DNA of 64,000 nt from Sphaerolaimus hirsutus (lineage: Eukaryota; Nematoda; Chromadorea; Monhysterida; Sphaerolaimidae), in contig OZ038457.1 of NCBI GenBank assembly GCA_964036195.1, positions 12,675,147 to 12,739,146 on the forward strand, written 5' to 3'. Within the stretch, counting starts at the first letter, position 1, and the number at the start of each line of letters is the position of its first letter. Position numbers and translations under genes: made by a program. This document shows, in pieces, positions 3,001 through 62,388 of this stretch. Below the pieces are notes generated by a model. The model searched no databases, had not been told where the DNA came from, and saw only the letters and a list, made by a program, of their open reading frames with translations.

Positions 3001-5431
3001 TAAACGTGTCTGGATGGATGTTAGGTAAGTCTGTCTGGATGGATGTTGGATGTCTTGGTAAGTAAGTGCGGGCATAATACTTATGTATTCACTTTCACAA
3101 AACGAAAATTTTTCTAAAAATAAAAAGGTGGAGTCACGAACATACAAACGACGAATGTGTTTTCCCGAAATGTCGTGTTCCTTATTTGCTGGAACGATTT
3201 TTATTTTATAAATGATGACGTCATGTTGGAATGTTTCCTTCAGAAATATGCATAGCATGCGGTAGGGTTGGAAAAAAATCAATTTTTTTTAAACGCCTTG
3301 ATTTAAAAAAAATCAAATTTTTGTTTCAAAATTGATTTTTTTAAATTAAAATCAGATTTTTTTTATATCGCCCAAAATGGGGGTATAGAGAAAAGATATA
3401 TGTATGTTAAGTGTCAGACAATATGTATTGTTATGTCTATTGTGGTCATATTATGACTGTGGAGTCATGGAATAGCATTATAAGCAGTGATTTCTTTCAA
3501 AAATATTCATTTTACGTCGACTTATCACGTATATTGCTTTTTGTCGAACATTCGTGACTTCAAGTGAAGTTCAGCATGGAATAGTGCTTAAATAAGGTTG
3601 TAAGAGAAGGCTAATACATTGACAGTGATGTTACACACTGTAGAAGTATGTGGGAGCACATTGGTTTGATATTATATACTACACTACCATATCATGACTT
3701 ATTATTACATGGTAACATGAATAAATGGAAGATTTTACACTAAAAATGCCCCAAAACCCATGAAAACACCACAAATGACAATATGTATGAGAAATTGCGC
3801 GCTTGCGCGCAAATAAATGCAAAATACCTAGTGCAAGTCTACCAGAAATTTTGCCTTTTGATTTTTTAAAATTAAAATCAGTTTCCACCCTTTGATTAAA
3901 ACAAAAATCTGATTAAAAAAAAAAATCAGTTAAAAAAATCAACTGCCAACCCTAGCATGCGGTCCACCGAGTATATTGTCGGTCTGTATACTAAATAGAT
4001 GCCCTTTGTGCAGGTTGAATCGAATGAACCTTGTATCAGCGATGTTGAAGTGACCGCCGCCAATTTTACCGTGGAGAATCTTTTCAATGCCGACAGCACT
4101 AGGGATGATGGCGTCCAAATGTTTGCTGATCCGCCGTGCTTGTTGAAGGCTACTGGACGCGGTGATTTTGACAGACGGAGAGGTGAATCATACTTTCACG
4201 GACTGGAACGACTTAATCGGATTAATTGGCGGCCCACACACTAGTTGACACATGTGTGCCAACTAGTCTGTGCCAACTCAGATTCCAGCTTCACGTGTCG
4301 AAGTTGCAGAGCAATCTTCCAATGCACAATCTTTATTTATTTATCATTTTTTCTTCAACATTGCCGCATGTGCATTTGGAGATCGCTCTGCAATACGTGC
4401 AGCCGAAATCTGAGTTGACACAGTACTGGTAATTATACTTGAAAAATTAGCCCCGTACACAGGCATTCTGAGGCATCGCTCTATATCCTGTCCAAATATG
4501 AATTTCTCGGACACAGAAGAGTATCCGTACCCAATCACAGCGGATGATGAGCCGATGCTTCTCGGTCAACAGATCGGTAGTACAAATTTTGGAACGTTGC
4601 CAAGGAGAACGTTCCGTCGCATGGATAATGGGTTAGTTAGTCGTTGTTCCAATGATATATTTTATCTACCTAGTATCGTTATCGAGACGTTTTTGAATGA
4701 AATGGTTGTCTAAAATGTTGAAAGCACCAAATATCGACATCAAGATATCTATGTATTATTATATTGCATTCGACCGCTTTTGCATTTCCACATAAATATA
4801 AGGAAGAATTTTCATTGCCCGTCATGCCCCCCGATCTTAACAATTATTATGATCCAGGAAAATTTTGTACAATACGGTTATACGGATATCGTTTTCAGTC
4901 AGCCGCGCCTGGAACTTGCGATGTCTGGCGCTCATGAGCAATCCCGGAGGAAGTCCCGCAGACGTATTCACACCGAATGTACGCAGGATGATGTGGCCGA
5001 CTTGAGAAGTTTTGGCCCTGGTGTGCCATCAAGGCAGGAAATGCATTACACAGGTATTAGTGCTGTTTCTACTCCATTGCATTATTTTTATTTTTATCGC
5101 TCGTATTTTTATGCCAATTTTCAAAATCATCAAATCGAATGGTCCTCTGACAAAATAGACAATTCATGATGTCGCCGAGAAAATTTTTGTGGATTTTTTT
5201 ATTATGTCTAATATCTACCGCCATCCCCGCGCAGACCCCATAGATCGGCTGGCGTCAACGCCGGGTCCAAAGTCGCCTGCAGACGCGTGGCACCAGCGGC
5301 GGCGTAGACGCAGCGCAACTGGCCACGATGCCACGCGCTTGGCACCAGCCGAATCTGTGCACGATGCGTGCCTGCTGAGAATTCGACACGTGTCTGAGCG
5401 GCACCCGGAGTTTGCGCGACTTTTCGGGAGG
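37..5431 (+). CDS. VPS13D: VPS13D exons 1-9: lipid-groove (bridge) segment
   Basis: The first exon encodes a Trp-rich stretch (YNWLSGWWWGAP) like the W-rich segment found in the N-terminal third of VPS13 proteins. The following exons alternate amphipathic beta-type segments, as expected for the repeating-beta-groove rod that carries lipids. Examples are YHERALQHLAAFFKLESSF in the exon at 2460 and the exon at 5235, which ends HPEFARLFGR. Acidic and Arg-rich linkers (SRRKSRRRIHTECTQDD at 4950-5000) lie between. The protein begins upstream of the window, so the chorein domain is not visible. Introns here hold a GC-rich MITE (301-744), a (GGGATC) hAT-like element (1592-2028) and a nested MITE pair (3060-3990). 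Confidence 0.75.
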
Positions 5432-8400: not shown

Positions 8401-11400
8401 TGAAACTTGCACCATCCCACATCTATCCTTTGCCAGCGTGAGCTTTTTAACCTCGCCCCGATTCGCCTTGCAGGCGTGCGATCTGCCCACCCGCTCGTCG
8501 CGCGTCCGTCTCAGTGTGAACGCGAACGCTAACCCGCAAAGTGCGCCGGGTGCCAGCGGCGGGCGCGTCTGCGTGGCCGTGCCCATGTGCGACCGCAGCA
8601 ACAAGGCGCTGTTGGCGCTCGTGGACAGCGTGACTATTAGAACTGAATTTGACTTTGCCACTGCCGCTTTGGAGGAGTTCGCCGCTAATTTTGACGAGAA
8701 TGGTCTGCTTTTTTATTATTTGTTTGCCTGCTTAGTTTCAGGGAGGGTGTAGCGGCCGTAATGAAAACCCGGCCGTAATGATAGCCTGGCTGTAATGTAT
8801 GCCTACCCGGCCGTAATGAAAGCCTGGCCGTAATGTAGGGGATGCTACATTACGGCCGGGCAACATTACGGCCGGTTTTACATTACGACCGGGTTCTAGA
8901 GAAGGGGGGGAGGGGAGTAGATTTCGTGTGACGTCGATTCGTGTACATCACCCCCCCCCCCCCGCAGACAGCCGAATGTGCGCTTCCCGACATGCTTTCA
9001 TCTGCACCGCCCAGTGCACGACGACAAATGATAGCATGATTTTTTGTTTTGTGCAATGTCCGGTTGCACGGGCCGTTTTCCTCATCGACAATTTGTGTCG
9101 ATTATTTATGAATGTATATGTGGGCAAATTGAAATTAATTGACTTAGCTCATTTTTCATCCAATTGATGTTGGCGCGCGCAACTTCTTTACACACACACA
9201 CACATACACCGAAAATCTGAAATTATTCACAATTATTTATAAACTGATGGAAATGAGGAAAACGGCCCCTGCAAACGGTCACCGGACTTTGCTCAAAANN
9301 NNNNNNNNNNNNNNNNNNNNNNNNNNNNNNNNNNNNNNNNNNNNNNNNNNNNNNNNNNNNNNNNNNNNNNNNNNNNNNNNNNNNNNNNNNNNNNNNNNNN
9401 NNNNNNNNNNNNNNNNNNNNNNNNNNNNNNNNNNNNNNNNNNNNNNNNNNNNNNNNNNNNNNNNNNNNNNNNNNNNNNNNNNNNNNNNNNNNNNNNNNCT
9501 ACATTACGGCCGGGTAGGCATACATTACGTCCAGGCTTTCATTACGGCCGGGTTTTCATCACGGCGAGGCCCCCGTCGTTTCAGGTGAATAACCCCTGGA
9601 CATTAAACACCCCACTAAAGTGCGCGCAGGCCGATTTCCAGGGGTGTTTCATGTCCACATCTGCTGGGTTACAGTTTCACTTGATCATGATAGTGTGCTA
9701 TTTCTTTTCAGAGGACTGTCTATTGGAGGTTTTGTCTGTCAATTTCAAAGAGATGTCTCTTCATTGTTCCAAGCGCGTGGATAACGTGGAAAAACCTGCG
9801 AGCGGCAAAAAGGTATTCTGTAACTATTTTTTGCATAAGTTCGTGTGGTAGAGTGAGCAGATAGTAGGGATGGAAAAAAGCGCTTTTTTTTAACGGCCCC
9901 GCTTTTTTTAAAAAAAGCGCTTTTTTTTTAAAAAAAACGCGCTTTTTTCGCTTTTTTCAAAAAATGTCGGGACGTTCACTAAAAAGCTCCCAAATATGGT
10001 TCCGTATCAATATATACAGGTATATCAGACAAGTGGCAGTACTTGTGATGATATATAGCCATAGAATGGCTGTGTAGCCATAGGATAGCATTATAAGTGG
10101 CGATTTCTGCCAAAAAAAATGTTTAATTTTGACTCATCATGTATATCGCCCTTTGTGAATGTTTCGCGACTTCAAGTGAAGTGAGGCATGAAATAGTGCT
10201 TATAAAAACGGCTATAAGGGAAGGCTAATACATTGAGAGTAATGTTTTACACTGTAGAAGTATGTGGTAGGTCATTGGATATTCTATGCTACACTAACAT
10301 ATCACTACTTATTATTACATGATAGCATACAGGAATAGAAGCAATGGAACAAAAAATGCCACAAAACCGATGAAAACAACCACAAGTGCTAATGTGCATG
10401 TGAAATCGCGCGCTTGCGCGCGAAAAATTGGAAAATACCTAGTGCATAAGTACTGAAAATTTTTGCCAGCGCGCTTTTTTAAAAAAAAGCGCTGGGACCC
10501 TTGCGCTTTTTTTTAAAAAAAAGCGGCGTTTTTTTAAAAAAAAGCGCTGGCCATCCCTAGCAGATAGTATACGTATTTTTTTAACCACTGCAGAAAATTG
10601 GCTGCACCAAATCCTTTGCGTTCTTGTGCGACGATGCACATAGTGGCCTTTTGCAAAATTCCGATGACAAGCGTGATGCAGCCGATAATTTCTGCGCTAA
10701 ACAGAATTCGATGGACCTGTGCGTGAAGATGATCAGAAATTTGGATGCTGTGGTCTGCGACAAAGGTAAGTTTTAAAGTTATTGTTTAAGTTTTAAGTAA
10801 GGCGTAGTGTAATGTTGTAAAAGATTTTGACGACCCGGTTACCCTGTTTTCTCAAATCACCTGGGTGCAGTCCCAGGCCGTGTAAAATATTATGTAAAGT
10901 GTCAAATTCCCTAGTGTCTTAAGTACTTCAGAACCATTTCGAAGCACATATAGGCTGATTCTTATATTTACACTACAATAAAATATCAATATTACCACCT
11001 AAATACCTGGCTTATAGATAGATTTCTCTTAATTCGCTCAGTCCCGCCGCTTTCGATACACGGATGCGTATCGCTGGCCCGTCTGCGGGTGCCCGCTCAG
11101 CTCTACACTTTGCTGCGCGGTGTGATCGAGTTAAATTTGGGTCAAAATGGCAACCCGGTTGACGTGCGCCCTCCTGCACTCATTAGTGCTATGCAGGTAT
11201 TTCTCAAACGAGATTGTTCTAAACACCTTCCCGGTCACGTCCGGCACCCATTTTTTGATTTTACTTCTCACATCCTATCCCCAGTTCTAGGGCACCCCAG
11301 AGGCTGAAACTTGGGGGAGATATTGGCGCAACCCCCCTCTACTTCGCACGAATTTGGGGGTCGCGGCGACCCCTCTCAGCGTGGGTCGCCCTAAGTGCAA

Positions 11401-14400
11401 ACATTTTTTCGGCTTTTTTGGTGTCCCACAGCAGGTCCGGCACCCGCTGATTTCTGAGCTGTGGGAGGGGTATAAATCTAAAATTTTGGAGATGTGTCAC
11501 CTACACCACTCCCCTACTATACACTATTCAATAATGTGAAATAAATGAAAAATTTCTCAAAAATTCGCTTATTCTCTAAAAAAACACCACTCCCCAATAG
11601 ATGGATGACAAAAAATTTACTTTTTGGAACTTTTTTATTAGACACTTGAAGAGATGGTTTACGATACTTTAAAGGGACCGGTTTGATGTTTAAAGTTTTG
11701 TAAAGAACCATACCTCTAAAATGCCTGCATTACAAAATTTACTTAGGGCGAATTTTATGACATCATAATGACATCATTGCAGGAACAAAAATTTAAAAAA
11801 TTTACACTTTGAAATTCCCCCCAAGTAAATTTTGCAATGCAGGCATTTTAGAGGTTTGGTTCTTTACGTAACTTTAAACATCAAACCCTTCCCTTTAAAG
11901 TATCGTAAACCATCTCTTCAAGTGTCTAATAAAAAAGTTCCAAAAAGTTAATTTTTTGTCATCCATCTATTGGGAAGTGGTGTTTTTTTAGAGAATAAGC
12001 GAATTTTTGAGAAATTTTTCACATAAATCTCACATTTTTGAATAGTGTACAGTAGGGGAGTGGTGTTGGTAACACATCCCAAAAAATTTAGATTTATACT
12101 CCTCCCACAGCTCAGAAATCAGCGGGTGCCGGACCTGCTGTGGGACACCAAAAAAGCCAAAAAAAATTTTGCACTTAGGGCGACCCACCCTAAGAGGAGT
12201 CGCAGCGACCCCCCCAATTCATGCGAAGTAGAGGGGGGTTACGCCAATATCTCCCCCAAGTTTCAGCGTCTGGGGCGCCCTAGAACTGGGGATAGGATGT
12301 AAGACGTAAAATCAAAAAATGGGTGCCGGACGTGACCGGGAAGGTGTTTATCTTGGGGTCTCTATCGCTGGAAGTTGATATTTAGTAAAAAATCGCTCTT
12401 CTGGGGGATAAATAGCTGAAACATTTGTCGGGGTGAGGGAGGGCTAGGGCCCATTCCGCATCAAAGCCCATTCCGCATGTAGGCCCATTATAGACACATT
12501 ATGCCTGCAGGGGTAAGAAAGGGGGGTGGGTAACACCACCCCAAACCGCCCGGCTATCTATATATCCCTGGCGCAAATTTTTTTGGCTACATTCCCCTGA
12601 ACACCCCCCCCCCACCCGCAAATTACCTAGCTATCTAGCTATCTGGAGCGCTTTTGAGCAATTTTGCCCTAATTTTCACCAAAATTCCCTAATTTTCATA
12701 CTTCTTATAGATTTTCACCTTCAAAATAACTAGGTATTCCATGTGTTTTATTACCTATTTTCAACATGCCAGGTATAGTTAAATGTGTTCCGGGTCAACA
12801 TGCGGGATGGGTTTACATGCGGAATAGGGAGTCCGCGATGATTCAATTTACATGCATTTAAACTTGTAGAAGGCAGAAAAAAGTAAAATAGTTGTAAATA
12901 AATAGGTTAAAAATGGCCAGAAATGGATTAAAAATAGCTAAATAAATGTAGATACATAATAGCATATATAGCCCAACATAACGATTTGAAGGTGGAAATT
13001 GGCCAAAAAATGGAGAGAAAAATTAGTGAAACGAACGATTTGGACTGAAAATTACGAAATTGTGCGAGTTTCCGTTTTTCTGTATATGTGTAGCCCAGTT
13101 TTCAAAATTCGAGTTTTTCCAGGTCGTTGAGCCCGTGCAACCATCATCAGCCGACGAAAATCGCGCGACATTCTCGTGCCGTTTTGATATTTTCGAAGTT
13201 GTCTTCGACTTGGAGCTGTCTGAACAACGTGTTGGACTGGCGGCACATTTGCACAAACAAACGCCTTGTCATCACGATTTCGCCACGGTCGAATTGAGAA
13301 GGGCAAAGGTCACTTTCGACAGTTTTGCCGATGGAAGCACGGAATTAGATGTGATCTGCAACGATTTGCGATTGATCGACACTAGATTTGAAGGTGAGGC
13401 GATTGAAACTGGGGCTCGTATTTATTTGAAAGGTTTCCCAAAGGTTTTAAATGGCTGCAGGTCGAAATTGTGAATGTGTCGTGTGTATGCCGCGTTGTAG
13501 TTTTTGAATTTTTTTACTTTTGCTGGTGGGCGAGCTTTTATCACCCGAGATTTTATTTGTTATTTTCCAGCCAGGGGGCAGTCCCGAGCCCTGTAAAATT
13601 TAAAGTGAAGTGTTAAATGTCATGTAAACTGTCAATCAAAACAAATAAGATTGTATTACTGAACTTTCGTGTTAATTGACACTTGAATTTACATTTTCCG
13701 GTTCTTGGAACTGGCGCCAGGTGATCCTTTTTAACAGCAGGATAGCGCGAGTTTAAAATGGAATCTGAAATTTACTGAAATTTTTGAATGTGGCAGTCAT
13801 TTTACCGTTCTTATTTCAGGGTATGCTGCAAATAATAGGCCAAATCAGTACACGATCATGTTGGAAAGCTGCCGGGAAGAACGGTCAGATGTGGATCCCT
13901 TTCAAGAATCCGCAGATCGCCTACTTGCTGAGCTGCACGTTTTGAGCAGGTGGTTAATTCGCGAATAGTATGGTCATGGTAGATTATATATCACCGCCCA
14001 AAAAATCAGTCTTCTGAATGTTCCAAATCTCTCCCAGCGCCCAAACTCATCGCACTACATTTGTTTTATCCGAGTGCCGGCTGACAGTTTTGCCCGACTG
14101 GTGGTACAAGCTGGCGAATTTCGTGTCGATGACTTTCGACGATTGCGATTTCGGTGAGCTTTTTCTCTATTTTAAAATGCGGGATTGACCGCAATTGAAA
14201 AGTTTCTTTCCGAAGAGTTAATATGTCAATAAATTTAGATTATCATGTTTGGCGCTGGTTTGATACAAGATTCCAGTGGCAATGTTTGCACCTCAAACAT
14301 TTTGCTAATAAAAAATATAACCACCAGTGATTCGTGATGTGAGCGGTTGTGAAGTTATAACCCATTTTGGTGAACATTTCATATAGAATGTCCATTTCGT

Positions 14401-17400
14401 GAAATTGAACCTTGTCCACAACCATCGATCAAATTCGCACAATATTGTGTCGTGTAAAAACGGCGTGTGTTCTAACTACTGTTTTGAAAACTGCAGCTAT
14501 TGCGAAGAGCAGCGGCGTTATTAGCAGGAACTTCAGTGAACCCAAGAGAATTGTACGTTATCTTTTTTATTACTTACGTTTAATATTTTTATAATTAATG
14601 GCTCACTTGAAGAGTTTCGTTCCATAAGTGCGTAAGCGCCAAAATCACAAAAATCTAGTTAAGCGTGCATTCGACATCCACATATATTTATGTTTGTACA
14701 TTTTAGGAAAAAAATTAGTATTATAGTCCATGTCGTTCCGGAGATACATTGGTACCGATTTTCAGAAAAAGCATGATTTTCACATCGAAAGTGTGTATCT
14801 CCACCATAAAAACGACATTTTCACATCGAAAGTGCGTATATCCATCTCGGGCCACCGGAATTACCACTTCGAAAATGCATATCTCTAAAAAAAAAGTTTC
14901 GTTCCAAAAGTGCGTCCGTGCTCCTGAAGAGGCGGTCAGAACTCCCATACAAAAGTGCGTGGCAAGCTCTGTCGCTCAAACATGGCGCTGTCGGGCCACC
15001 GCTAAACTTTAAAATGCGAATTTGAAAAATTAAAATTGGTGGAGATATGCACTTATGGAACGAAACTTTTCACTTCTATTTTCAGTCTGTTGAAATTCCC
15101 GCAACGTCAGAACCCGAAATGGAATCTCAGAATTGCGAGACTAAGGTCAATCTAAGAAATTGCGACCTGGTGCTGATAGAAATACCAAAAGACAGGAGTA
15201 CACTGGGCCTCCTGATCAAAGTTTGTTCTTTTCTACACTACTAGGCTTACGATTACTTGCTACTTTGTACAGACGGAACGCTATACAATGAATGCTACCA
15301 TATTTTGATGAATAATGTTAGGTGAAATTTTTTCACCCAAATTGGGAGCAATGTTATCACGATGATAAATTTTTTATGTCTGTTGGTTTATTCAGATAGG
15401 ATACGGTAGACTTCACTATAAGGGGTACCGTCAGTAGACTATATCTAACCCCACGTTCAGACAACGGTGGCGCTGTACATCCGCGCGGACAAAACGTCAG
15501 TGGAAGTGCAGAGTGCGCAGGTATTCGCGGCCAGTCTGCGCGCCAGCGTGTCGCACAAGCGCACTTCGCCCGACATGCACATTGGCTCGCAGGTGCGTCG
15601 CGCGTGCATAGACTAGGGGACAAGGGCGTAGCCAGGGGGGGGGCGGGGGGGGCGGCCGCCCCCCCCTTCCCGGGTCGGACACAAAAATATGCCAGAAATG
15701 ACACTTCCGTAAAGCGATTTTGTTGGTAGATCGGAAAAATTTTGCGCGCAAGCGCGCATTTCGTCGCCCTACAGTATATTTCATTGATACCCATAGTTTG
15801 GGACAAAAAAGCACCCAAAATCTGTCCCGGTCGCAGTCTATGTATGTAAAATACATACATGTACAGCGGTATTTGGCGCCATTGCCAACGCCATGGAACG
15901 CTCTATAAGTATGTAAATAAACATACAAAAACAGCAAAAAACAACAACATTGAGTGTATTTAAACACCTTCCCAGACAAGTTCACCACCCATTTTTTTAT
16001 TTCACTTCGAATGCAATATCTCCGTTCATGAGGGTGTTATAAAGCTGAAACTTTGTATATATAAAGTTGTAACACCCCTCTACTCTCCAACAATCGGGGA
16101 TGTGCGGCGACTCACTACAGGGTGGGTCGCCGCACCTCCCCGATTGTTGGAGAGTAGAGGGGTCTTACAACTTTATATATACAAAGTTTCAGCTTTATAA
16201 CACCCTCATGGACAGAGATATTGCATTCGAAGTGAAATAAAAAAATGGGTGGTGAACTTGTCCGGGAAGGTGTTTATAACGATTTGCGGCCACATGGAGC
16301 GAATCTGATGATAATACCTCATGTCTGGTGAAAAATACGCGCGTGCGCGCAAAAATTTTTACGCTGACGTCGAAAAAGTCGCATTTTCAGGTCACTTTCT
16401 GGTTTCACCCCGGGAAGGGCGGGGGGCTGCAGCCCCCCCCGCCCCCTGGATACGGCCCTGAACTGTGCCGATGCTCATGTAAACCCGGTGCTCATCTAGG
16501 CCCATGTAGGTGCTGTACTATGTACGGTATGCCCGGTAAATGCATTTCCGCACCTCACACTCTGTTATTGTGATGTACGTTTAAATAGTGTAAATACCGC
16601 TGCAAATAACTAAACTCTATGCTCATTATCATACATTTAGGCATATATAATTTCTTTTATATTTAACATTGGCGCTAATGCCAATGCCAATAACGCCATT
16701 GTGTGGCGCCTACAAATGCCCATCCATATAGAATCCGCCCCCCTCCCCCTTAACAATTCCGGCTGTGTCCCTGAGCACGGGGTAGTGCTACATGAGCAGC
16801 GGGTTTACATGAGCACGGGGTTTAGGCCGTGTCAACCGCGGATAGGTTCTCAAGTTGACTTCTATTAACCCCAGGCTGTCCTACTGCGATTATCTCGTGC
16901 TGAGGGCAGTGTTGGCTCGATTCAAAGGCCAGTGGGACGATGCTAATTCTAGTCAAATGTTGGTTTTCTGCCCTTTGGCGTGTGTATAATTTTTTACAAA
17001 TGTTATTTTTACGTTTATTTTTCAGTGTGGCGAGCAGTCTAGATTCTAACAAAGCGAACACCGTGCTCAATCTAGTTACGGTTCGTTCCCTTGATGAAAT
17101 CATACGCAATAATGTATTTATTATGATCTCACTGATTGTGCGTTACCACTTTATCAGGCTTCATCCGACTCGCTGTGCGTTTGGCTGTTGGACGATTTCG
17201 AGGACACCAGGTTCCCCCTGCTCAGATTCGGCATAGACGGCAAGATCTCTTCATTTTTGTTTGATTTTATCGATAGCATGATATGTGATTTTGTCCGTGT
17301 AGATATGCGACTGGTCCATTGTGTGAGCGTCGTGCCGGCGCAGGGACATTGTCTCAATGCGACTATCTTTGTTGACTTCTTCAACCAGGTGGGTTTGTTG

Positions 17401-20400
17401 ATGCTGAGTCTGCACCGCTCGGCATCTAAACCTGCATGGCATCTGGACCCGCGTGGCATGGATTTCTGCCTGCATGGCATCGACCCGCGTGGCATCTATT
17501 GTCCCATAGATGCCAAGCGGGCTACATGCCTGCACATGCCATGCGGTCTCCATGCCGTGTGGGTGTAGATGCCAAGCGGGCTGAACCCCCCCCCCACACA
17601 GCCATGAGACGGCCTCATGGCGGGCTGTTGGGCGCCTGTGCATGCATGGTGTCCCAAAATGAATTCTGACAAAAAATGTTGTTTTTTCAAAAATTCATGC
17701 TGAACCTTTACCTGCACAGCTGAAATATTACTCGCTGAACCTCGCTGTTTATCCAGTCCAGTGTATCATGTGCACAAGAAATATGAATTCAAAATGTGTA
17801 AAAGTTTCAATGTTTTTCCCAATTATTGTTTTCATATGTCAAGTGTCTCTGAATTTTTTTATTTAAATGCAAATATGAGTACTGTTTGAAATGGGGAAGA
17901 AGGGTAGATAAATACATGCATGCCCATGCAAATTCATACATACAATTCTTTAGTAACCCTTTAAGAGTGGCTACTAGAATAAATTTTTATCAAGCCATTT
18001 TTTTGTGGAAATTGCATTTTGGGACACCATGCATGTAAAAAGCCTCAAATTGATCTGGGTAGTGTGGTGCGATATGCATTGAATATTGTGTACATGGTGG
18101 CTTAGAAATAGATGGTCAAATTAGATATTTTTAACAGATTTTCTGGGATCATATTTAATTTAATTTTCTCAAAATCAGCCAATTTGAAATGTGAAATTGA
18201 AATAAAATATTGATCAATATATTTAGTGTTGTGTTCATCCAAATACTGTGTTTGATTGAAATTTAGCCATATGCACTAAACTAGGAAACTAGGAATCCAC
18301 CAATGTAGGCCACCCTGTAAATGAGTTAAAATTCCATGTGAACACTGCTGGAACTCAATGTTGAAAGCCACTTGAACAGGGTGGCCCAATACACATGGAA
18401 GTTTACAAAGCTGTTTCCAAAAATGATCAATCAATTTGAGTGTTGCCCCTTAACACTAAGGCTTTTTACATGCATGGTGCCCCAAAATGCAATTCCTACA
18501 AAAAATGGCTCGATAAAAATTTATTCTAGTAGCCACTCTTACAGGGTTACTAAAGAATTGTATTTATGAATTTACATGTGCATGCATGTATCTATCCTTC
18601 TTCCCCATTTCAAATGGTACTCATATTTGCATTTAAATAAAAAAATTCAGAGACACTTGACATCTGAAAATAATAATTGGGAAAAACATGGAAATTTTTA
18701 GACATTTTGAATTCATATTTTTTGTGCACATGATACACTGGACATGTAGACCCCCCCTGCCCGCTTGGCATCTGGCCCTGCCCGCGCGTTTGGTATCTAT
18801 GCCGCAGTCCGCTTGGCATCCAGCATTGGATAGATGCCAAGCAGGTCTAGATGCCAAGCAGGCAGAAATCCATGCTATCCGGGTCCTGCCAAGCGGATTA
18901 GATGCCATTTAGGCCTGACCCGTTGATGCTCTTTGCATCCGAAATTTGCGAAGGCAGCGGGCCAGGTGTCTCCTAGATTTTGACCCTCCGGAGGGTTGAA
19001 TAGATATAGCTGAGCGTCCCCCGGGATAGATAGATAGCTGGAAAAATGGGGGGGGGGGTTGCGGGAGTTTTATGTATCAGGGTGTAGAAGGGAGAAAATT
19101 CGATAAAAGAAGGTGTAAAATAGCTCAAAATGAGTATGTTTTACTGAAAGTAAATCTGAACTGAAAATAGGTAAATCGGAACAAGAACTAGTGATTTTGG
19201 TCTAGGAAAATCTATAAGATGGTATGAAAAAATAGTGATTTTGAGCAAAAATTGGGGAGCAATAGTCCCCCAACCCCCGTTGGAGACCCCTGCGGGGGGC
19301 AATAAAGCTGCTGCAAGTTTTTATATTTTTCATCATTCTGATGGGATGCGGTAGATTTCATTACCAAACGGTAGACTTTAGGCATCTACAATGTGTCTGC
19401 AATTGCTTATTTCTCAGTCCGTCTACGCCTGGGAGCCGCTGGTGGAACCTTGGATCGTGGACAGCGCCACCTGGCTGACACAAGGCAACTATGTTAGGCT
19501 AGATCTGAAAGCGGGTGGGTGTCACTTCTCATATTGATTTTATCATCACTTTATTTTAATCATTTTCTAAATGATGCATGAAATTTTCCAGCATTGGGCG
19601 TGCTGGACGTGAACGTGAGCCAGCCGTTTGTGCGTCAGTTCACCGCCGGCCTGGCCAGATTCGCGCAGCTGCGCCATTCGCTGGATATGGAATTCCGGTT
19701 TGTTCCTTGACTCGACCACTTTGAAAACAGACAGAGAGTGTGATCTTTCCGTTTTTAACGATAGATTTTTACTATTCTAATTCGTCACTAAACTTCATTC
19801 ACTGTGTGAATCGCAGATCCCGTCTGTTGCACCCGTCCACTTCAACGAAAGGTATCGGTGAAAAATGCGATCACCTGCCCTACATCCTACATAACAATAC
19901 CGGCCTGGAGGTGACATTCTATACTACTGATTCTGGCGCCAGTGCGCAAAAGCGCCGCTCTGATGCTAAGAAAGCAAAAATGGTAGCGGCCGGCGCCAGT
20001 GTCACGTTTGAATTTGCCGCCACGAGAAGCTTGTTTTTTAAGGTTAGTGTATGTGTAACGTTTTTAAAATAAAACCTTTTTTTAAACATCCCGCATGTGG
20101 TTGCGAGTCAACGTATACAGGTTTATCAGACAAGTTGCAATACTTTGTGATGTCACAAAGCCATAGAATGGCTATGGAGCCATGAATAGCATTATAAGTG
20201 CTGACTTCTGTCGCATCCATTATTCTGTCGACTCGTCACATAAATATACCGCCGTTTGTCAAAAGTTCGTGATATTGGGCATAGATTAGTGCCTAGGTAA
20301 ATAAGGTTATAAGAGAAGGCTAATAGATTGAGAGTGGTGTTTCATACCTAGAATAATTTGGAAGCCTGGTTCGATATTATCTACCGCAAATCCTCGAATA

Positions 20401-23400
20401 AGACCCCCCCTCGAATAACTCCCCCCTCTTGAATAGCTCACCCCTCTGGATGAAAACGATACAATACAAAATACAATAGAATATAAGCCTACAGCAGTGA
20501 CAGCAGATACGTGACGTGTATGCAGTGTATACACATATTTTTGTTATTGTTGGTCAGTTAAATACCTGTATTACACGAGTTTACAGACTGCATCCATACA
20601 TGAATAACGTCCAAGTTTTCTGCGGAAGAGATAACTCTCCCCTCGAATAACTCCCCCCTTCAATAACTCCCAATACTTACCTATCTGTAATTGTCCTTGT
20701 AATTTAAATGCCAAGTGAGCAACATTTCCTCGCAATACAAGTAAACTACGCTTACAGTCGGCCGCCTCCCACCACCTGGAAAGCGACGCGCTAACAGCCA
20801 GTCGAAACCAACTTGTGGTCACTGCGGACGGATTCCACGAGTGCCAGCCGCTGTGCGTCGACAGGGCCGGCACCTATTTCCGACTCGCCGCGCCCAGGGA
20901 CGATTGCGGCAAAGTTCGCGCCGACGCGTTGGTATGTGTCGCTGGCGACAGTTTTTTGCATTCGATTTTTAGATTGTTTTCTATTTCGTGCTACCTCGTT
21001 CAGAGACCGGGAAATATGTATGCACGCATTGTGGCTGTAGTCAACACCGATCAAGATGGCCGCAAAGTGGTCACTGTCAGGTGAGCTTTGTTGTGTATCG
21101 CTAACGATGGCAACCCCCCGGAAAAATGTGTTGTCTTTGTTGTGAAACGACTTCTAATTTTCCATTTTTTCCTGAAATAAATTACTATTTTAGTTATCGA
21201 ATTTATTTTTTTAATTTTCTTAAATATCGATTTTAAAGGGTTTTTTCCACGGCGTGATCAAAAATTCGAAAAGTCCAAAAAAAGATCGAAAACTGTTTGG
21301 AATTTTCGGAATTTCCTTTGCCATTGTTATCTATTCCATAGCCCGTTATCTGCGCGCAAACTTGTCACATTGCCTTTGACAGGTCGGCCTTGTTGCTAGT
21401 CAACGCTCTCTCTGATTGGCTGGAGGTGCGGTTGGAAAACAGCACCACGCACGTTGGAGGTGAACTGTTTTGTTGTCGCATGCTTTCACAAGCGTGTGTG
21501 TATTTCACGGGCGTAACGTTGCAGACACCGTGGATGTGCTGCTGGCGCCCGGCGAGTGTCAGCCCGCACCGCTCGCGCACGCCGTTGCTAGACTCACTGC
21601 TAGACCGAGGTATTTCTTGTCACTTTACTTGACTTTTAACTTGCCACTTATCATTTTACTTGACTCTTTACTTGTCAACTTGCGGAACAGGCCCCAGGTC
21701 GTTTTTTGACTTATTGACTGCGATGATTTCCCGACGGAGAAATTCCCCTTCTCATAACTGCCGGCATTCACATTTTGCAAATCAGTATTTAGGTATCCAT
21801 ATCTAAAATATATGAAATAAAACAAAATATAAAATACATATTTAACATAAATATTCATCCGCACAGGCCCGACAAGCGTTCGGCGGTGAGCCCGACCAGT
21901 AGCAGCGGCGCGGACGCGTGCGCCTTCGGCACCGTCGGCCATTGCAATTCGGTGCCCTACCAGTGCGTCCGTTCGGCTGGCCAGCGGGTTGACTTCCTGC
22001 GTAACTGTTATGATGTCATGCAGCCCAGGGATAGACCCGTTTACAGGTCTGTGTCATTTTTTAGACGACTCCCTTCACATTCAGCAACAAACTTCTCTGT
22101 CGCTTGTGTAGGTTGTGCGTGTGCGTGCAGCGGGAGCACTACCCCATGTGCCCGCCGCACGTGGCAGACCAGTACACGCTACCCGGCCATACGATAACTT
22201 TTGCTGCCAGACTGGTCCTGTGTAATTTGACGCCAGAGTCGCTGCAGGTGCGTGCCATTATACACAAGGTAGCGTGAGGCTGTGAAGCGATGCTGTAACT
22301 ACCGGTAGTGCTGTAACTGTATTATCTAGTGAACGGCACAATTGACGATCATCTGTGTCGCACAGATACCGTATATCCTCGAATAAGTCCCCCTCAAAAA
22401 CTCCACCCTCGAATAGCTGCCCCTGTTAGCTGAGTGAGGACCCCCCCCCCTCTGGAATAACTTCCCCCAGCTTTGACACTAGTTAGAATGGCGGTGCACT
22501 TGTACGCACAAATGCCTGGTACGCACAAACGCCAGGTACGCACAAAATTGTGCCCGCCACGTATATCTGCCCGATACGAAATAACATTACATTACATTTT
22601 GAGCGTGTTTTTCACTTCACACTTGTTAGTGAAGTGAAAAAAAGTTGTGTAATGACATTACTTAACTTTTTGTCACTTCACATATATTTGAACATCACTT
22701 GAAAAAGTGCCAAGTGAAAAAATGGTGGATAATGGCCATTTTTGACCGTTTTTTTCACTTGACACTTTTTCAAGTGATTTTCATATATCAGTGAAGTGAA
22801 AAAAGCTGTGCAATAACATTAGTGACCATCTGTCCGGTACGCAAAGATCCTCAGTCATGTAAGTACCGGGCAGATGTGCGTGGCGGGCACAATTTTGTGC
22901 GTACCGGGCGTTTGTGCGTACCAGGCATTTGTGCGTAGGAGGCCTGGCCCGTTTGAATTATGTTTTGTGTGTGTTTTCTGTAAAATTTAAGTAAATATTC
23001 TACACTTGGTGCTCAATAGTGTTGATTTTATTCCTTCAAATATACAATCTGTAATTCAACTTATGATGTATTATACCTATACAACCCCGTTTACGCACTA
23101 AATTGAACACATATTTTACGCTAAATTCTGATGGAAAAATAACTCCCCCTCAAATAAGTAACCCCTCAAAGCATTCTGACAAAAAAGTAACTCCCCCAGG
23201 GACTTATGTGATGAGGATCTACGGATATACAAGCTAATGTCCTCTGCTGTGATACAGGTGACTCTGTACGGGCGGCAAATGGCAGTTCCGGCAGGCACGT
23301 GGCGCCAGTGTGATTGGGTCTGTCCAGGTTTTGGCGAATTTTTTGTTGTTTATCCGTCCGTTGCACAAACGGCTGCACTCAGGCGGACACGTCCGACGGC

Positions 23401-26400
23401 GTGTCGATGCAAGTGTCGACCGAGTCGCTGCACACGGTGCGCCCGCTGCACGTGAAGCCGCCCAAGCTGTTCGCCCTGCTGCACCAAGGCGCCGCGGTCA
23501 ACGACCGCAGCCAGCAGAATGAGCTGGCTGACTGGGAGGGCACCCAGCTGCCGCTCACCATGGTCGACGCGTACAAAAGGCAATTGAAAGCGATCGCTCT
23601 AGTGCATTATTTGAAAGGTGGCACTGTGAAGGTGCGTTTTTTCATTGTGGCCGATAATTGACGAGTGAACAAGTAGCGACGTTTATCCACTCTGCAAAGG
23701 TGAGCATCTGCGCCCCGTATTGGATTGTAAATCAGACTGGTTTGCCCATCGTTGTGAAGCAGGAAGCTGCCGCCGACCTCGCCGCTGGTCAGTTTTTCAA
23801 TACTTGGGGAGTTTCATTCTAAAAATGCATATATCCAAGTTTTTCGATTTTTCAAAATCGCATTTTAAAGTTTGACGCTGGCCCGACGACGCTATGTTTG
23901 GGGGACAACGCTTGCCCCGCACTTTTCGGATAGATCCGACATTTCTCTACAATTTTTGTAATAGCAAATTTTGTTGGCCGGGAAATATTTAGGGAGTTAT
24001 GTGAGATTTTGTAAGTCACCCAAAATTGGGAACAAATCTGAACATTTGAAATTAAATGGTTAATAACTTCTCAACGGTGCATCGTAGGATAAAACGAATT
24101 ACATCACTGCAAAGCCCGTGTCTAAAAGTACCTCTACGTAAATTTTCAGATCAATATATGCACGCATATTTGATTTATAGTGCAAAATATATTTGGAAAT
24201 TCACGTATGCATTTTTGGAAATGAAACTTTTTTTTTGTATGGGAATTCCGGCCAGCTCTTCGCGGCCGCGCCGAAGCACGCGTGCATTTTTGGAAATGAA
24301 ACTATTTTTTGGATGTGTGCACTTATGAAATGGAACTCCGGTGGTCCGAGATGGATATGTGCACTTACGAAATGAAAGTCCTGTTTTTTATAGGGGATCT
24401 GAGATGGATATGTGCACTTTCGATGTGAAAATTGTGATTTTTCTGAAAAACGGTACCACTGTATCTGGGAAACGAAATGGACTATAACGCTGATTTTTTT
24501 TCTAAAATGTGAAAAACTATACGTGGAGGTCAAATCCACGCTTAACTCGATTTTTCTGGATTTGGCGCTTGTGAACTTTTAGAATGGTACTCCCCACTTA
24601 TACTCGACGGACCGCAAAGTATTCGCTGAAAATTACTTTAATATGTATACAAAAAGAAAAATATTTTTAAAAAAGTCTTTTTTTGAACAATTTTTTATTA
24701 TTAATGATGACGTCATGATGCAGTGTTTCCTTCAGAAAAATACATGCATCCTGTACCTGTACGCCGAGTATATAACAAATATAAAAATAGCGACCTTCTT
24801 GCACTAAATAGTGAACGTAACGCAGGCCAATTTAGCGAGCACGAGCAGGCGCGTTCCAAGGTGCCGCTGATGTTTTCGTTCGCCGAGGACGACTGCCCTA
24901 AACAGTGCGCCCTGCGGCTCGGGCTCAAAGGGCACGATGCCCGACGCTTGAGTGGTGTTTCCCACCCAGTCTGGTGCACAAAGTTCCCCCTGCAACAGGG
25001 GGTCATCAGTAGACGATTGAAGCTGATTTATGAGAACAGTAACAGCGCGGACGTGTTTGTTTTTCTGTTTGACGTTTTATGTGTTTCAAGTTTCAGAAGT
25101 TATTTTGATGAGTGGTTTATCTCGCCCCACTTTTGCAGCGTTTACGATGTCGGCGTGGAAGTTCGGGCTGGCGCCGGCGTACACAAGCACACTACCAGTG
25201 TCGTACTCAGCGCAAAATACCAACTTCTCAACACGACGAATGAGCACTTCCTGGTCGCACAAAATCATCAAGTTACGCAGGTTAATTGCCAGTATAGCCT
25301 CAGACAAGCGCATTTTAGAGGGAAAGGGCCCATACACCAGTTGACATCAAAATTTGTGTCAACTAAAATTGACTAAATATTGGTTAATAATGTGATTTCG
25401 ACGGCTGGCCATTTCAACTTTCGAATATGATACAGACTAGTTAATTTTATACCGTGGCATCTGTTATACTCGACAGACACGATACTCTACAAACAGATAG
25501 GAGTTACGTACCTTTTTTTTATCAAAGTCGAAAATCTATGTCAAACTGAAAACGTTAAGGACCGATTTTTCACAAAAGAATTAAGAAAATAATAGATTTG
25601 TCTGTATGCCGGTTGACGGTACTATTTTCAAGTGAATATGTCGCGTTTCCGGAGCCAGAAATATTGCTATTTATCTTCAGCGGAACTTATGCAGGCTATT
25701 TCACCAATTGCGGCGAAACGTTTCGAATGTGGCCTTTAGATTCAGGAAATATTTCGTTCTAGTGCGGCTGAATTTTCCATGACACACGCTTATTTTCTTT
25801 TTTGTATTTCACACAGGAACGAGTTGGACAGCGGCTGAAATTTATGACGTATTACACCTAGGGTTGGAAAAAAAACGTTTTTGTTTTAACTCGATGTTTT
25901 AAAAAAAAAACGTTTTTTTTTAAAAGCTCCCAGATATGACCTTGTGTCAACATATATAGGTATATCAGACAGTGGCAATATTCTGTGATGTTATATATGA
26001 CCATATAATGGCTGTGGAGCCATGGGATAGCATTATAAGTGGTGATTTGTGTCAAAAATATCCATTTTTTGTCGACATATCGTTCGTATATCGCCTTATA
26101 GTCAAATGTTCGTGACTTCAGGTAAAGTTTGGCATGGAATAGTGATCAAACAAGGTTACAAAAGGAGGTTGTTACTTTGGGAGTGAAGTTACACACTGTG
26201 GAGGTACATGGAAGCACATTACCTCAATATTATATAGTACAGCAACATATGGCGGCTTATTAACCCATGGTAGCACATAGAAATGGATACTTTGATACTA
26301 AAAATGCCACAAAACCAATGAAAACAACCACCAATGTGTGTGAAATTGTGCGCTTGCGCGCAAAAATTTTGAAAAATACCTAGTGCTTAGTACTAAAAAT

Positions 26401-29400
26401 TTCGGCCGATGTTTTTTTTTTAAAAATACGTTTAAAAAAAACATCGGCCAACCCTAATTACACCGCGGGAGTGTTTCCTCGGGAAAAATTTACGGCTTAA
26501 AGTAACCCGAGTATACGCGTTTGTAATGCTATAGATGCTAAAATAATGACTTTTATCAATGGCCCCATTTCTTATGGCGCTTTTCCATCACTAGTGCCAG
26601 CGGCAAACGAAGGGATGCGTATTGTCACTTTCACGTTCTATTGTTGTCTAACGACAAGGACAATCTGAATCCCTACATTTGCCCTGAGTCTACATGCGCG
26701 GCGGGTTTACATGCGCAGAAGGCCTTAATCCTTTCTGTCAAGTTTGATGCTTTTTAAAATTTTTTGTTATTTAGTTTACATTTAGTTGATACAAATTTGC
26801 GATGTCAACTAGTGTGGGGCGAACATTTGCGCGAACCCTAAAACGACAGCGCGTTTCTGGCCCCAGTAAACCATAATAAACTTTCACGTCGCCGACAAAG
26901 CTGTTTGCCCTATGACCACGCACCCCCACAGGCTCCGCCCTCCAGTTCACAGTCGCCGCCGCCTACCGCTTCGACCGAGTTCGCCTCCATAGCACCCAGC
27001 GCCTGTCTGGTTTGGCATTGGCCCAACGCTGAACGCGACCAACTTTTGAGGGTTCGGCCGGCTACGGCGAAATATTGGAGCGAACCGTTTCGTATCGATG
27101 CCAGCGCCAGCTTTGAGTTGGCTCTCAGGTGTGGTCATCGCCTGGAGTTTCCAATGGGGGCTGAGAGGTAACCCCGAAACCGCCCAGCTATCTATCTATC
27201 TATGTATCCCGGCGGCTGCTCAGCTATCAATATTTTTTGGCTACTATCCCCTGAACCTCCTTCCCCCCAACTCGCCCAGCTATCTAGATATCAAGAGCAA
27301 TTTTCACATGGATTCAAATAACTATAGATACAGTTGCACTTACATTAAAGCACCCTGTGCATGCATTTGAGATGCTGTTTCCTGCGCAGAGGCCACCCTG
27401 GTGGGATGTGGCGCGTGCGCGTGCAGGTGAGCCAGTGGGGCGGCGGCTTCCGCGTGGCGCTCGTGTGCGTGCCCGCCGCGGCCGTTGGCTCCGAGCCAGA
27501 GCCCGAGCCCGTGCGCGTGTGCAACAACAGCGACGTGCCGCTGCTCTTCAGGTCGGGTTTTGTTTTGTGTTTCTATTTTAGCGCGTGTATTTTGTTTCGT
27601 GAATCTCTCCCATCTGGCTGTCGTATGTTGTTACAGGCAGCACGAGTGCAACGAGCAACACCAATCGGACGTGATTCAACCGCACAGTTCGCGTGAGTCA
27701 CCTCAGATACGTGGTCAATGATCTATATGAATACGTTTACGTACTACGTATCACCGTATCACATTTACGTACAACGTTTGCAACTTGTAGAGACAAGATG
27801 GGGACAACGTGTTGACAATGTCTTGTTTCCACGTGTTTTCGATGTGTCAATGGCGCACCGCACACTGAAATTTTGAGTTCAGCGTTCGAACGTTTTTGCA
27901 CGCTGAACTACAAACGCTGAAATCAAAATCTAAAGGACACAAGGTTTTTGAAGCGTAAAAATTCGGAATTTGTAATTCTTCGCGTAATTTACATTCGAGC
28001 CGAAATTTTTACGCTTCAAAAACGCTGTGTTCTTTAGATTTTGATTTCAGCGTTTGTAGTTCAGCGTGCGAAAACGTTCGAACGCTGAACGCAAAATTTG
28101 TATGTGTGGTGCGCCATTATGTTGTATCGACGCTGGGTTTATACGCGTTACAATTGCAGTGGGCATTGAAATGCTGTGGGACGATGTTGTCTCTATGCTG
28201 CATTTTTTGTCAACACGTCCCCATCTTGTTTCTACTTGTTTCGGAATTGCTGTGAATGAATTTTACCTCAAACCTCCGCAAACCTTACCTTCGCTCAAAC
28301 AATGTCACGGTCGCAGTTCCCTACGCGTGGGACAACCCGATGAAGCAGCAGGCGATCACACTCACAGCGTACAGGTCGAAATCGGTCACTTACGATTTGA
28401 CCGTTCAGGGCGAGAAGGATAAATTGTACTACCAGAACTACTTTTTCATCGCTTTCGCTGCGTCATTCGAAGCTGGGTTAGTTCTAAATATATTTTAACA
28501 GCCTGTCTAGCATTTTTATGCTTTTTCGATTTGGGGGATTATAGTTTTATGTCCTTAATACCTATTTTGAGCTTTTTTTACCTACGTCTTGCGATTTTTC
28601 TCCCTTTTATTCCTTATAGACCTTGGAAAAGCCTTATATTTAATCCCCGCAACCCTCCCCCCAAAATTCTTTTTCAGTAATCTATGCCTCCGGAGGAGCC
28701 ATTTGCCGGGGATGGTCCGGCCGTAACGTAAACCCGGCCGTAAAGTAGAGGGTGCTACTTTAGACCGGGCATCATTACGGCAGAGTTGTTAAAAGTACTG
28801 AACGTTTTTCAAAGTAAACGTAAACGTAAAGTATTTTATTTTTAGTCACACCTGAGTACAGAAAACGTAAAGTAAAACTTTTCTACTATTATGCCGTGTA
28901 AAAGGTGAGTAAACTTAAATATCTGTAAATACTCAGGGAAAGCGTAAAAGTAAGGACGTTTTCGATTTTGTACCTAGGAAAACGTAAAAATGAGTATACG
29001 TGAAAGCGAGAGTCGTCGCTATCCCTACCCATCGCGAATTCTATAATCAATCACAATTACTCAATCACAATTAATCATTAGAATTCTCAATCACGTTTTC
29101 TGTACTCGCCTACTTTCAAAAAGTACGCGAGTAAGTGAGTACCGGTATTTTTTCGGGAGGAAACGTAAACGTATTTACGCAGCACTCGAGTATACGTATT
29201 TATCGAGTAAACGTAAATACGTTTGTACAACTATGCATTACGGCCGGGTTTACTTTACGGCCGAGTTCTCGCCCCATTTGCCATCTATCGAACCCCCAGA
29301 GGGTCAAAATCTAGCGTAACCCTCCCTACAACCCCTCCCCCCAATCTCCCTCCGAATTGCTATCGAACCCCCGCAAGGGTCGAAATTCTGGGACACCCGG

Positions 29401-61100: not shown

Positions 61101-62388
61101 TACTCAAAATCACAACTCACAACGGCGGCGCGCTCAAATCCACATCAGCATCGCACTCAGTCACGATGACATCTTCACAGTCCTCCTGCTCGAGCAGGTC
61201 GTCCTCCCCGGTGGGGGTGCGCTGGCCCTCGTCCAAATCAACCGACGCGTCGTCCAGGGCCAAAGTGGGTGGATCTTCGTTTGACTCCACGCTGCCTTGT
61301 CTGTGTGCAGAATTGGGTGGGTGGTTGGTTTCATAGGTAAACTATGAACTTGAATGGCCCCCTATACATGTAAACCCACTCGACATGTAGACCCGTCACA
61401 GGGGTATCCAATAGGGGGGATCCATCTAATTAAGTGAAGCAAATTTTGAGAGTTTTTCATGAATTTTCACCCTACATTGTTTATTTTTGTTTCATTTTAT
61501 CAATTTTCATTTTTAAAATCGCTATTTTGGGATATACACAGTTTTATTCTGTTTTTAGCTATATTCCACCTACATGCCGAGCGGGTTTACATGTCTACAG
61601 GCAAAGGCCACCCATTTCACCTACATATCCAGAACTTTCGATGAACTCCCCCTAAACACGCTAATTATTCTGCACCACAGACCCCTAATGATGGGCTATA
61701 CCAAAAGCAACTTAAACACCTCGATACCGCCCCACCTGTGCCCGTCTTCCATCGGAGTGACGCATCTGCTCATGGGCCTGCCGTTGGGGTGGATGCTGCC
61801 CGGCCACACGCCCACCGTGTAGGCGACCGCCGACGCGTGGTCCAGCTTGCCCGGCATCTCCGACAAGCGGGTCTTCACCTGCCGCCGGAAGCGGCGCTGC
61901 TCGGACTTGGACATGTGCGAGTCCTCCCGGTACAGGTCGGGGTCTTCGAGAAAGCGCCGCTTGGCTCTGCGAGGGTGATTGGGGGTGGTTTTGAAGGGTT
62001 GCTGGACACGGACTATGACCGGTTTTAATGCAAGTATTTTAGGTGCCACGCAATTTGCGCTCATGGAACTAGGAATGGCTCTTGGTTTTTTCAACTGATG
62101 TTTTAAAAAAATCGGATTTAAATTTTTTACATCAATTTAAAAAAAATTTAATCAAGGCGTTTGAAATTTTTATTATTATTTTCACCCCTACATGCCACCA
62201 CCGATCACTACAAAATGCGAACAACAAAGCACTGTGACGCACGCGGTGAGCCTCTGTGCAAAATTGATCATCACGTCGACCAGCTGCTGTGCGGTGGATA
62301 CCCCACTGGGTCGACTTGAATTGTGCGTGGACGGGCCGGCGCCGTATTTCAGCAGGTCCTCCATGCGCAACAGCATCAGCTCGTGGCG
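58164..62388 (-). CDS. C-terminal extension of the PPM-like protein
   Basis: Seven exons follow the catalytic core. 62243-62388 begins RHELMLLRMEDLLKYG and ends in a predicted helix (VDVMINFAQRLTA). 61736-61966 has an Arg/Lys-rich stretch (SEQRRFRRQVKTRLSEMPG) and then KLDHASAVAYTVGVW, resembling the continuation of this phosphatase-like family. The remaining exons look disordered: an acidic segment (EDDLLEQEDCEDVIVTE, 61121-61300), a Cys-containing segment (QLGKCNCCIEVDL, 60278-60548), a Pro/Gln-rich segment (58654-58883) and a basic, Lys/Ser-rich end (SGKKSKKKHARG). The charge pattern suggests protein docking or regulation, which is inference. The intron between 58884 and 60277 holds a three-level nest of transposons. 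Confidence 0.78.

What the first reader, a model, noticed from the sequence alone, without database searches (positions are those of the whole stretch)
3263..26456. Three hAT-like MITEs share one core but carry different subterminal arrays
Copies at 3263-3954, 9865-10559 and 25859-26456 have TAGGG(T/A)TGG ends, perfect 8-bp duplications and a colinear core of roughly 500 bp. The inverted arrays between end and core differ: A/T runs with GATT/AATC in the first, with GCGC in the second, with ACGT in the third. In each copy the left and right arrays match each other. Point mutation would not change both arms in concert. This suggests the arrays are rewritten as a pair, for example by hairpin or template-switch repair of a folded end, or exchanged between families. 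I know of no name for this behaviour.
Basis: partly seen in the sequence, partly recalled or inferred. Interest (0 to 1): 0.75.

Follow-up and report, generated by a model that had tools for sequence, protein, structure and literature searches.

The report
Subfamily-specific end codes in hAT MITEs
Three small transposons share a middle but carry different short DNA words repeated at both ends; in the copies examined each word belongs to one inherited subfamily, most likely as docking sites for its own transposase, so the pattern is real but does not need a new way of rewriting DNA.

Summary
Three hAT-type MITEs (perfect 8-bp duplications, TAGGGwTGG ends) share a core of about 460 bp (75-76% identical) and carry end arrays of different words: GATT/AATC, GCGC, ACGT. 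The window's own genome (348 Mb) holds 3712 exact copies of a core motif. Array word follows core clade: left and right words agree in 67 of 73 both-ended copies (shuffled maximum 53), and GATT, GCGC and c3 copies form supported clades. At c3 core junctions the own word occurs 2228 (left) and 3288 (right) times, GCGC 0 and 1, the one being an unrelated repeat. So arrays are subfamily traits, not rewritten copy by copy. Left-arm spacing is kept across subfamilies while words change. Best reading: the words are subterminal transposase-binding sites, like Hermes BED sites, that diverged with different transposases. Precedents: CMITE, Galileo, VANDAL/VANC. Against a pure reading: left and right arrays co-vary weakly inside the ACGT subfamily, GATT ends may come from an old exchange, and no autonomous partner was found among 21 of 28 transposase hits examined.

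The parts
3263..3954 (+). MITE copy 1 (GATT type), duplication GCATGCGG
3272..3368 (+). copy 1 left array, GATT/AATC words beside A/T runs
   Evidence: 6 words
3377..3834 (+). copy 1 core
   Evidence: alignment
3857..3945 (-). copy 1 right array, GATT/AATC words
   Evidence: 7 words
9865..10559 (+). MITE copy 2 (GCGC type), duplication GCAGATAG
9874..9965 (+). copy 2 left array, GCGC words
   Evidence: 7 AGCG/CGCT
9986..10446 (+). copy 2 core
   Evidence: alignment
10467..10550 (-). copy 2 right array, GCGC words
   Evidence: 8 AGCG/CGCT
25859..26456 (+). MITE copy 3 (ACGT type, shortened), duplication ATTACACC
   Evidence: longer relatives
25868..25924 (+). copy 3 left array, ACGT and CGATG words
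   Evidence: AACG 4, CATC 1
25931..26387 (+). copy 3 core
   Evidence: alignment
26404..26447 (-). copy 3 right array
   Evidence: AACG 1, CATC 2
20040..20390 (+). broken fourth relative: left part of a core (20089-20390) with a decayed left arm holding an ACGT-like word; no element ends found
   Evidence: arm matches only weakly (L3 z 5.8, L2 z 5.3)
62070..62190 (-). coreless relic, probably of GATT type in reverse orientation; words mixed (GATT and CATC); duplication 6 of 8 by eye
   Evidence: left half scores best with R1 (z 7.9, but L3 z 7.6), right half with L1 (z 4.2, others up to 2.7)

Best explanation
The elements are non-autonomous hAT (Ac/hobo-like) MITEs of one family that has split into several old subfamilies, at least one with thousands of copies. 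Each end carries an array of half-sites, a 3-4 bp word next to an A/T run. The word is a fixed subfamily trait inherited with the core (shown for the copies examined). The words are most likely binding sites for the N-terminal, BED-type domain of the transposase that moves each subfamily (inferred). Both ends meet the same protein, so both arms are held to the same word; a change of transposase specificity, or capture by another transposase, changes the words of both arms during subfamily divergence while spacing and core drift more slowly (inferred). Array lengths vary between copies (shown), so gain and loss of modules inside an arm probably helps spread a new word (inferred).
For: Word follows clade: c1 5 of 5, c2 12 of 12, c3 50 of 55 both-ended copies have the same own word in both arms. 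Clades GATT 100/96, GCGC 97/90, c3 100/100 in a 38-row core tree with 12 c3 rows. GCGC on c3 junctions 0 against 2228 and 1 (unrelated repeat) against 3288. 10 of 10 fetched GCGC left arms (of 91) run into c2-like core; 22 of 22 c1 left junctions read (of 244) have GATT and none of the other three words. Word columns differ between subfamilies by .33-.80, spacing .14-.36, core .17-.25; restricted to columns with G or C, arms .53-.81 and core .37-.46. Hermes BED domain binds a 4-bp word only if an AT-rich region follows, and two sites in quasi-palindrome are bound cooperatively (PMC10368747 sections 12-13).
Against: No binding or transposase partner shown: the stretch downstream of 21 of 28 hAT dimerisation-domain hits (20 regions) held no matching right end with an array except one belonging to a nested MITE. 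Inside c3 own arms match slightly better than permuted arms, which could mean exchange between arms. GATT ends are more diverged than their core. L091, a single mixed-word copy, has a core nearest c1 (.17) but arm spacing nearest c3 (.23.16 against .36.27 for c1), which suits exchange. Spacing near 20 bp is not seen in GATT elements (9 of 41 at 18-23 bp).
Confidence: 0.72

Rival explanations
1. Ends are exchanged between subfamilies or families by recombination: a core is captured between the two ends of another element, so both arms change at once.
For: GATT elements drop to .45-.56 identity with the other subfamilies just inside the left end (alignment columns 120-200), where the others agree at .78-.94, and recover in the core; junction homology is weak (left z 2.3-6.0 against 9.9-15.4 between other subfamilies). 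L091 core and arm affinities disagree. Galileo has the same centre with ends of three subfamilies (PMC3573991 section 8) and CMITE has one centre with different ends (PMC2872659 section 10).
Against: No exchange seen among present copies: GCGC on c3 junctions 0 and 1 unrelated, 10 of 10 and 22 of 22 sampled ends with their own core. Between c2 and c3 the sequence beside the arrays is as similar as the core, so for GCGC against ACGT no breakpoint shows.
Confidence: 0.18
2. Arrays are rewritten as a pair inside single copies by hairpin or template-switch repair that copies one folded end onto the other.
For: Within c3 (n 55) own arms match better than permuted ones: 57.0 against 54.4 inverted and 61.1 against 54.9 direct, 0 of 2000 permutations; it persists against nearest-core neighbours in direct orientation (27 pairs, p 0.004; inverted p 0.07) and after collapsing run lengths (38 and 3 of 2000). 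A CAACG variant is associated between arms in inverted orientation (5 both, 6 left only, 5 right only, 39 neither, p 0.02).
Against: Array type is fixed by subfamily. Left-arm spacing stays left-specific. The strongest shared variant is in direct, not inverted, orientation (22 both, 6, 5, 22; p 1e-5; inverted 0 both) and also occurs in outgroup copies, so common descent can give it. In c2 (n 12) inverted coupling is absent (436 of 2000; direct 29 of 2000) and in c1 (n 5) absent. Two other hAT-like elements of the window share words between halves only in direct orientation.
Confidence: 0.07
3. The left-right match is chance in low-complexity A/T-rich DNA.
For: Alignment scores of arms are weak (same-copy inverted z 2.1-2.8, while one cross-copy pair reached 3.9), and copy 3 alone is not exceptional.
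Against: Left word equals right word in 67 of 73 elements; shuffled mean 41.0, maximum 53 of 10000 shuffles.
Confidence: 0.01

Closest known systems
Subterminal repeats of hAT transposons, best studied in Hermes (PMC10368747; passages and sections 12-13 seen)
   Same: short words inside the ends, needed next to AT-rich DNA, some in quasi-palindromes, bound by the BED domain of the transposase
   Different: in Hermes the right end is not bound by BED domains in the transpososome and the word is not repeated in long A/T-run arrays; no binding has been shown here
CMITE of corals (PMC2872659; abstract, sections 10 and 15 seen)
   Same: one conserved centre with different end sequences in different families, left and right ends matching in families I-III, one copy with a mismatched centre type
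   Different: piggyBac-related with TTAA duplications, about 100 bp, no word arrays
Galileo of Drosophila (PMC3573991: abstract, section 8, first part of discussion; PMC3688188: abstract and section 2.5)
   Same: subfamilies with different ends, one centre found with ends of three subfamilies, repeated transposase-binding sites in the ends, binding domain prefers its own subfamily's ends
   Different: P-element superfamily, THAP domain, 7-bp duplications, long inverted repeats; chimeric copies are present there and were not found here
VANDAL/VANC of Arabidopsis (PMC5735166; abstract, sections 9-10 seen)
   Same: short target words in tandem repeats that differ between related elements, several units diverging together, protein specificity changing too
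   Different: anti-silencing protein rather than transposase, plant elements, words not paired at the two ends

Membership tests
hAT superfamily, non-autonomous | 8-bp target duplications | tested here: met
   perfect in the three window copies and in 69 of 73 both-ended copies, which had been selected for at least 7 of 8
hAT superfamily, non-autonomous | short terminal inverted repeats starting YAGGG (recalled) | tested here: met
   TAGGGTTGG or TAGGGATGG at both ends of most of the 73 copies; ends were found by allowing one mismatch to TAGGG
hAT superfamily, non-autonomous | duplication bias of the nTnnnnAn kind (recalled; the string occurs in papers listed, none read for it) | tested here: met
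   T at position 2 in 40 of 69, A at position 7 in 33 of 69, both in 19; carried mostly by the 53 c3 copies, in the 16 others T2 6 and A7 5
hAT superfamily, non-autonomous | moved by a hAT transposase with the same ends | tested here: inconclusive
   28 hAT dimerisation-domain hits in the genome; no matching array end downstream of the 21 examined apart from a nested MITE
MITE | short, non-coding, high copy number | tested here: met
   598-695 bp; no ORF of 120 aa or more lies inside the three copies; core motif 3712 exact copies
Hermes-like subterminal binding sites | repeated word next to an AT-rich tract | tested here: met
Hermes-like subterminal binding sites | bound by the BED domain of the transposase | not testable with these tools
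   needs protein and binding assay
CMITE | piggyBac-type ends and TTAA duplications | tested here: not met
   8-bp duplications and TAGGG ends
Galileo-like chimeras | present copies in which one core is joined to ends of another subfamily | tested here: not met
   GCGC on c3 core: left 0 (control 2228), right 1 of unrelated origin (control 3288); other combinations only by samples, and L091 is a possible old mosaic
VANDAL-type concerted word arrays | many units of an array change together between related elements | tested here: met

The most novel reading that the evidence does not exclude
One hAT MITE family has changed its end code several times (from mixed ACG/CCG/ATG words to GATT and to GCGC): nearly every half-site of both arms changed while left-arm spacing, and outside the GATT lineage the flanking core too, was kept, giving mutually isolated transposase-MITE systems side by side in one genome. 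The arrays would be a readable fossil record of DNA-binding specificity switches of transposases.
Probability: 0.4. Interest if true: 0.6.

Novelty: new variant of a known kind. Interest (0 to 1): 0.42.

Why it matters
Subfamilies that share a core but differ in the word of their end sites give a natural series for asking how a transposase and its many binding sites change together. The words are short and the copies many, so specificity could be predicted and tested word by word. It also shows that shared cores with different, paired ends need no exotic repair process.

Tried and rejected
Local alignment of left against right arrays was too weak in A/T runs to decide; word counts, linkage and a tree replaced it. 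The neutral simulation is decisive for copy 2 only. Three pattern scans of viral contigs and one of genome contigs found nothing. The search for an autonomous partner failed: 4 of 20 regions held a near-match to the right end within about 1.2 kb, and only the one in L086 has an array, which belongs to a deleted MITE beside a different hAT; (upstream of L086) was fetched but not analysed. Paper searches listed no paper on these elements or on word swaps in hAT MITEs; only an open-access library was searched and listings were judged by title and abstract start. One script failed on a missing file and was mended. The c1 core search and a c1 right-junction search did not complete.

Samples and dropped rows: L001-L038 are the best hits to the c2 and c3 cores, so biased to close copies; L039-L068 are the first 30 places of the core motif on contig 1; L091-L107 were picked from that list mostly for unusual spacers. 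L001 and L009 repeat window copies and were dropped. 14 of 87 elements without clear ends were left out of the 73. The tree used 38 rows, 12 of them c3. L091 stands for its subfamily alone. In one search I placed two regions wrongly: L121 lacks the left arm, L125 the core side. Word sets per subfamily were chosen by me after reading the arrays.
Full report
WHAT IS THERE. Their cores of about 460 bp are 75-76% identical pairwise. Words differ as described: GATT/AATC 6+7 only in copy 1, AGCG/CGCT 7+8 only in copy 2, AACG 4+1 with CATC 1+2 in copy 3. Copy 3 alone would not carry the claim. The window also holds a broken fourth core and a coreless relic at 62070-62190. One of five ORFs scanned matches a VPS13 domain and another a reverse transcriptase with a phage-integrase domain, so the host is taken to be a eukaryote; it was not identified further.

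GENOME COPIES. The window's own genome is held as G000: 348 Mb, 762 contigs. A motif of the core's right part occurs 3712 times, against 0 for the reversed control. I read copies found by core similarity, by that motif, by the c1 left junction and by the GCGC left arm. From the first two sources, plus the window, 87 elements with at least 280 bp of core were extracted, 73 with both ends.

ARRAY TYPE FOLLOWS CORE. Of the 73: c1-type GATT/GATT 5 of 5, c2-type GCGC/GCGC 12 of 12 (three of them only 78-81% like copy 2), c3-type ACGT/ACGT 50 of 55, and L091, whose core is nearest c1, CCGT/ACGT. The five other c3 copies, window copy 3 among them, have one arm short, decayed or tied by this measure (listed). 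By a looser measure, two AACG in each arm, 52 of 55 qualify, and no c3 copy has two GATT or two AGCG in both arms; two of 12 c2 copies also have two AACG in both arms. Left word equals right word in 67 of 73; 10000 shuffles gave a mean of 41.0 and a maximum of 53. A core tree of 38 rows puts GATT copies in one clade (100/96), GCGC copies in one (97/90) and the 12 c3 rows in one (100/100), with a fourth clade of mixed ACGT/CCGT words (L091 and two partial copies, 98/95). ACGT-like words occur in several places of the tree, including broken copy 4, so they may be the older state with GATT and GCGC derived once each; that is inference. Further partial copies show other or mixed words.

LINKAGE IN THE WHOLE GENOME. 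At the left junction of the c3 core the ACGT word occurs 2228 times and GCGC 0 times. At the right junction the c3 partner word ATGTTT occurs 3288 times and GCGC once; that place reads as an unrelated GCGC-rich repeat, not an array. Ten of ten fetched GCGC left arms, of 91 found, run into a core nearest c2. The c1 left junction occurs 244 times; in the loci fetched, all 22 occurrences have GATT and none of the other three words on the left, the c1 core follows in 21 (the last was cut by my fetch), and the eight elements with a right end found have GATT there. GATT words on c2 or c3 cores, and ACGT on c1 or c2 cores, were not counted genome-wide.

SPACING STAYS, WORDS CHANGE. With words masked, positions 10-65 of left arms agree across copies (scores 45, 46, 50; z 7.5-8.7), better than left with right of the same copy (17, 35, 28; z 1.3, 6.5, 4.0); unlike pairs score 20-34 and right arms among themselves 26, 20, 33 (z 2.3-6.4). 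So left arms keep a left-specific frame that arm-to-arm copying would have erased; for right arms the test does not discriminate. Between four subfamilies (the fourth being L091 alone) word columns differ in .33-.80, spacing columns in .14-.36 and cores in .17-.25. Since word columns were picked for holding words, I also compared only columns with a G or C in single copies: arms .53-.81, core .37-.46. Successive words are 18-23 bp apart in 57 of 80 cases in GCGC elements and 184 of 393 in ACGT elements, but in 9 of 41 in GATT elements.

RESULTS THAT CUT THE OTHER WAY. Inside c3 own arms match better than permuted ones (57.0 against 54.4 inverted, 61.1 against 54.9 direct, 0 of 2000). In c2 (n 12) the direct effect is weak (29 of 2000) and the inverted absent (436), in c1 (n 5) both absent. 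Left and right word numbers in c3 correlate weakly (rho 0.26, p 0.056). Against nearest-core neighbours the direct effect remains (27 pairs, p 0.004), the inverted less clearly (p 0.07). Run lengths of both arms also track core youth, so copy age contributes; but the coupling persists in the young half (direct 0, inverted 59 of 2000) and after collapsing run lengths (3 and 38 of 2000). One run-interruption variant is in both arms of 22 of 55 copies (6 left only, 5 right only, 22 neither), in direct orientation (inverted: none in both); a second variant, CAACG, is associated in inverted orientation (5 both, 6, 5, 39; p 0.02). Copies of the fourth clade carry the first variant, so common descent of sub-subfamilies can explain it; exchange between arms is not excluded, and a hairpin route is disfavoured by the first variant only. 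Second, GATT elements differ from the others just inside both ends more than in the core, with weak residual homology (left junction z 2.3-6.0, against 9.9-15.4 among the other subfamilies; right 0.7-6.0 against 4.1-8.0). L091 has a core nearest c1 but arm spacing nearer c3. Both fit an old exchange of ends.

HOW IT MOST LIKELY WORKS. Ends and duplications, with a bias to GTYnnRAC carried mostly by c3 (69 duplications), suggest Ac/hobo-like hATs (family consensus recalled). In Hermes the BED domain binds a 4-bp word only if an AT-rich region follows, and two such sites in quasi-palindrome are bound together (PMC10368747, sections 12-13). The arrays here have that grammar. I infer that each word is the site of one transposase, that selection through that protein keeps both arms alike, and that words changed with the protein during subfamily divergence. 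Binding, the protein partner and the path of the change (site by site, through mixed arrays, or by exchange) are not shown.

COMPARISON. Different ends around a conserved centre are known from CMITE (PMC2872659, sections 10 and 15) and Galileo (PMC3573991, section 8); binding sites in end repeats with subfamily preference from Galileo (PMC3688188, abstract and section 2.5); units of a word array diverging together from VANDAL (PMC5735166, sections 9-10). What I did not find in those parts or in the searches listed under Tried and rejected is a swap of words in a kept frame on both arms of hAT MITEs.

Noticed in passing
window 59790-60179: Another hAT-like element (TAGGGTTCAAACGG ends, duplication with one mismatch) whose two halves hold CCCGATCCC words 4+5 times, only in forward orientation; a 65% relative lies at 1627-2028.
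   Followed up: partly
window 56481-56690: A 210-bp element with TAGGGTTGG ends, a perfect 8-bp duplication and CCCGA words 3+6, only in forward orientation.
   Followed up: partly
window 603-618, 3796-3811, 10407-10422, 15743-15758, 26347-26362: A box close to TGCGCGCTTGCGCGCA is shared by the MITE cores and by other repeats at 458-744 and 15621-15893; 11 strand matches within 3 mismatches in the window against 0.71 expected.
   Followed up: no
L086:1-700 and 791-1081: A hAT transposase fragment with CCGTTTTCCGG repeats near its own end lies beside a deleted copy of this MITE family that has yet another array word (ACATTTTT).
   Followed up: partly
window 41014-44199: A 1061-aa ORF with reverse transcriptase, RNase H-like and phage-integrase matches, resembling a DIRS-type retroelement (name recalled).
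   Followed up: no
window 11220-12350, 15961-16276, 27849-28118, 22503-22937, 31598-31810: Several long self-inverted stretches (71-94% over 213-1140 bp) that look like further palindromic repeats.
   Followed up: no
window 1202-1303: Possible further array relic on the minus strand, beginning near TGGGGATGAAAAAACGTTTT; hit by a profile of the three left arms at E 5e-4.
   Followed up: no
window 24723-25376 and around: Part of a VPS13-like gene (Pfam VPS13_VAB, E 4.2e-14).
   Followed up: no
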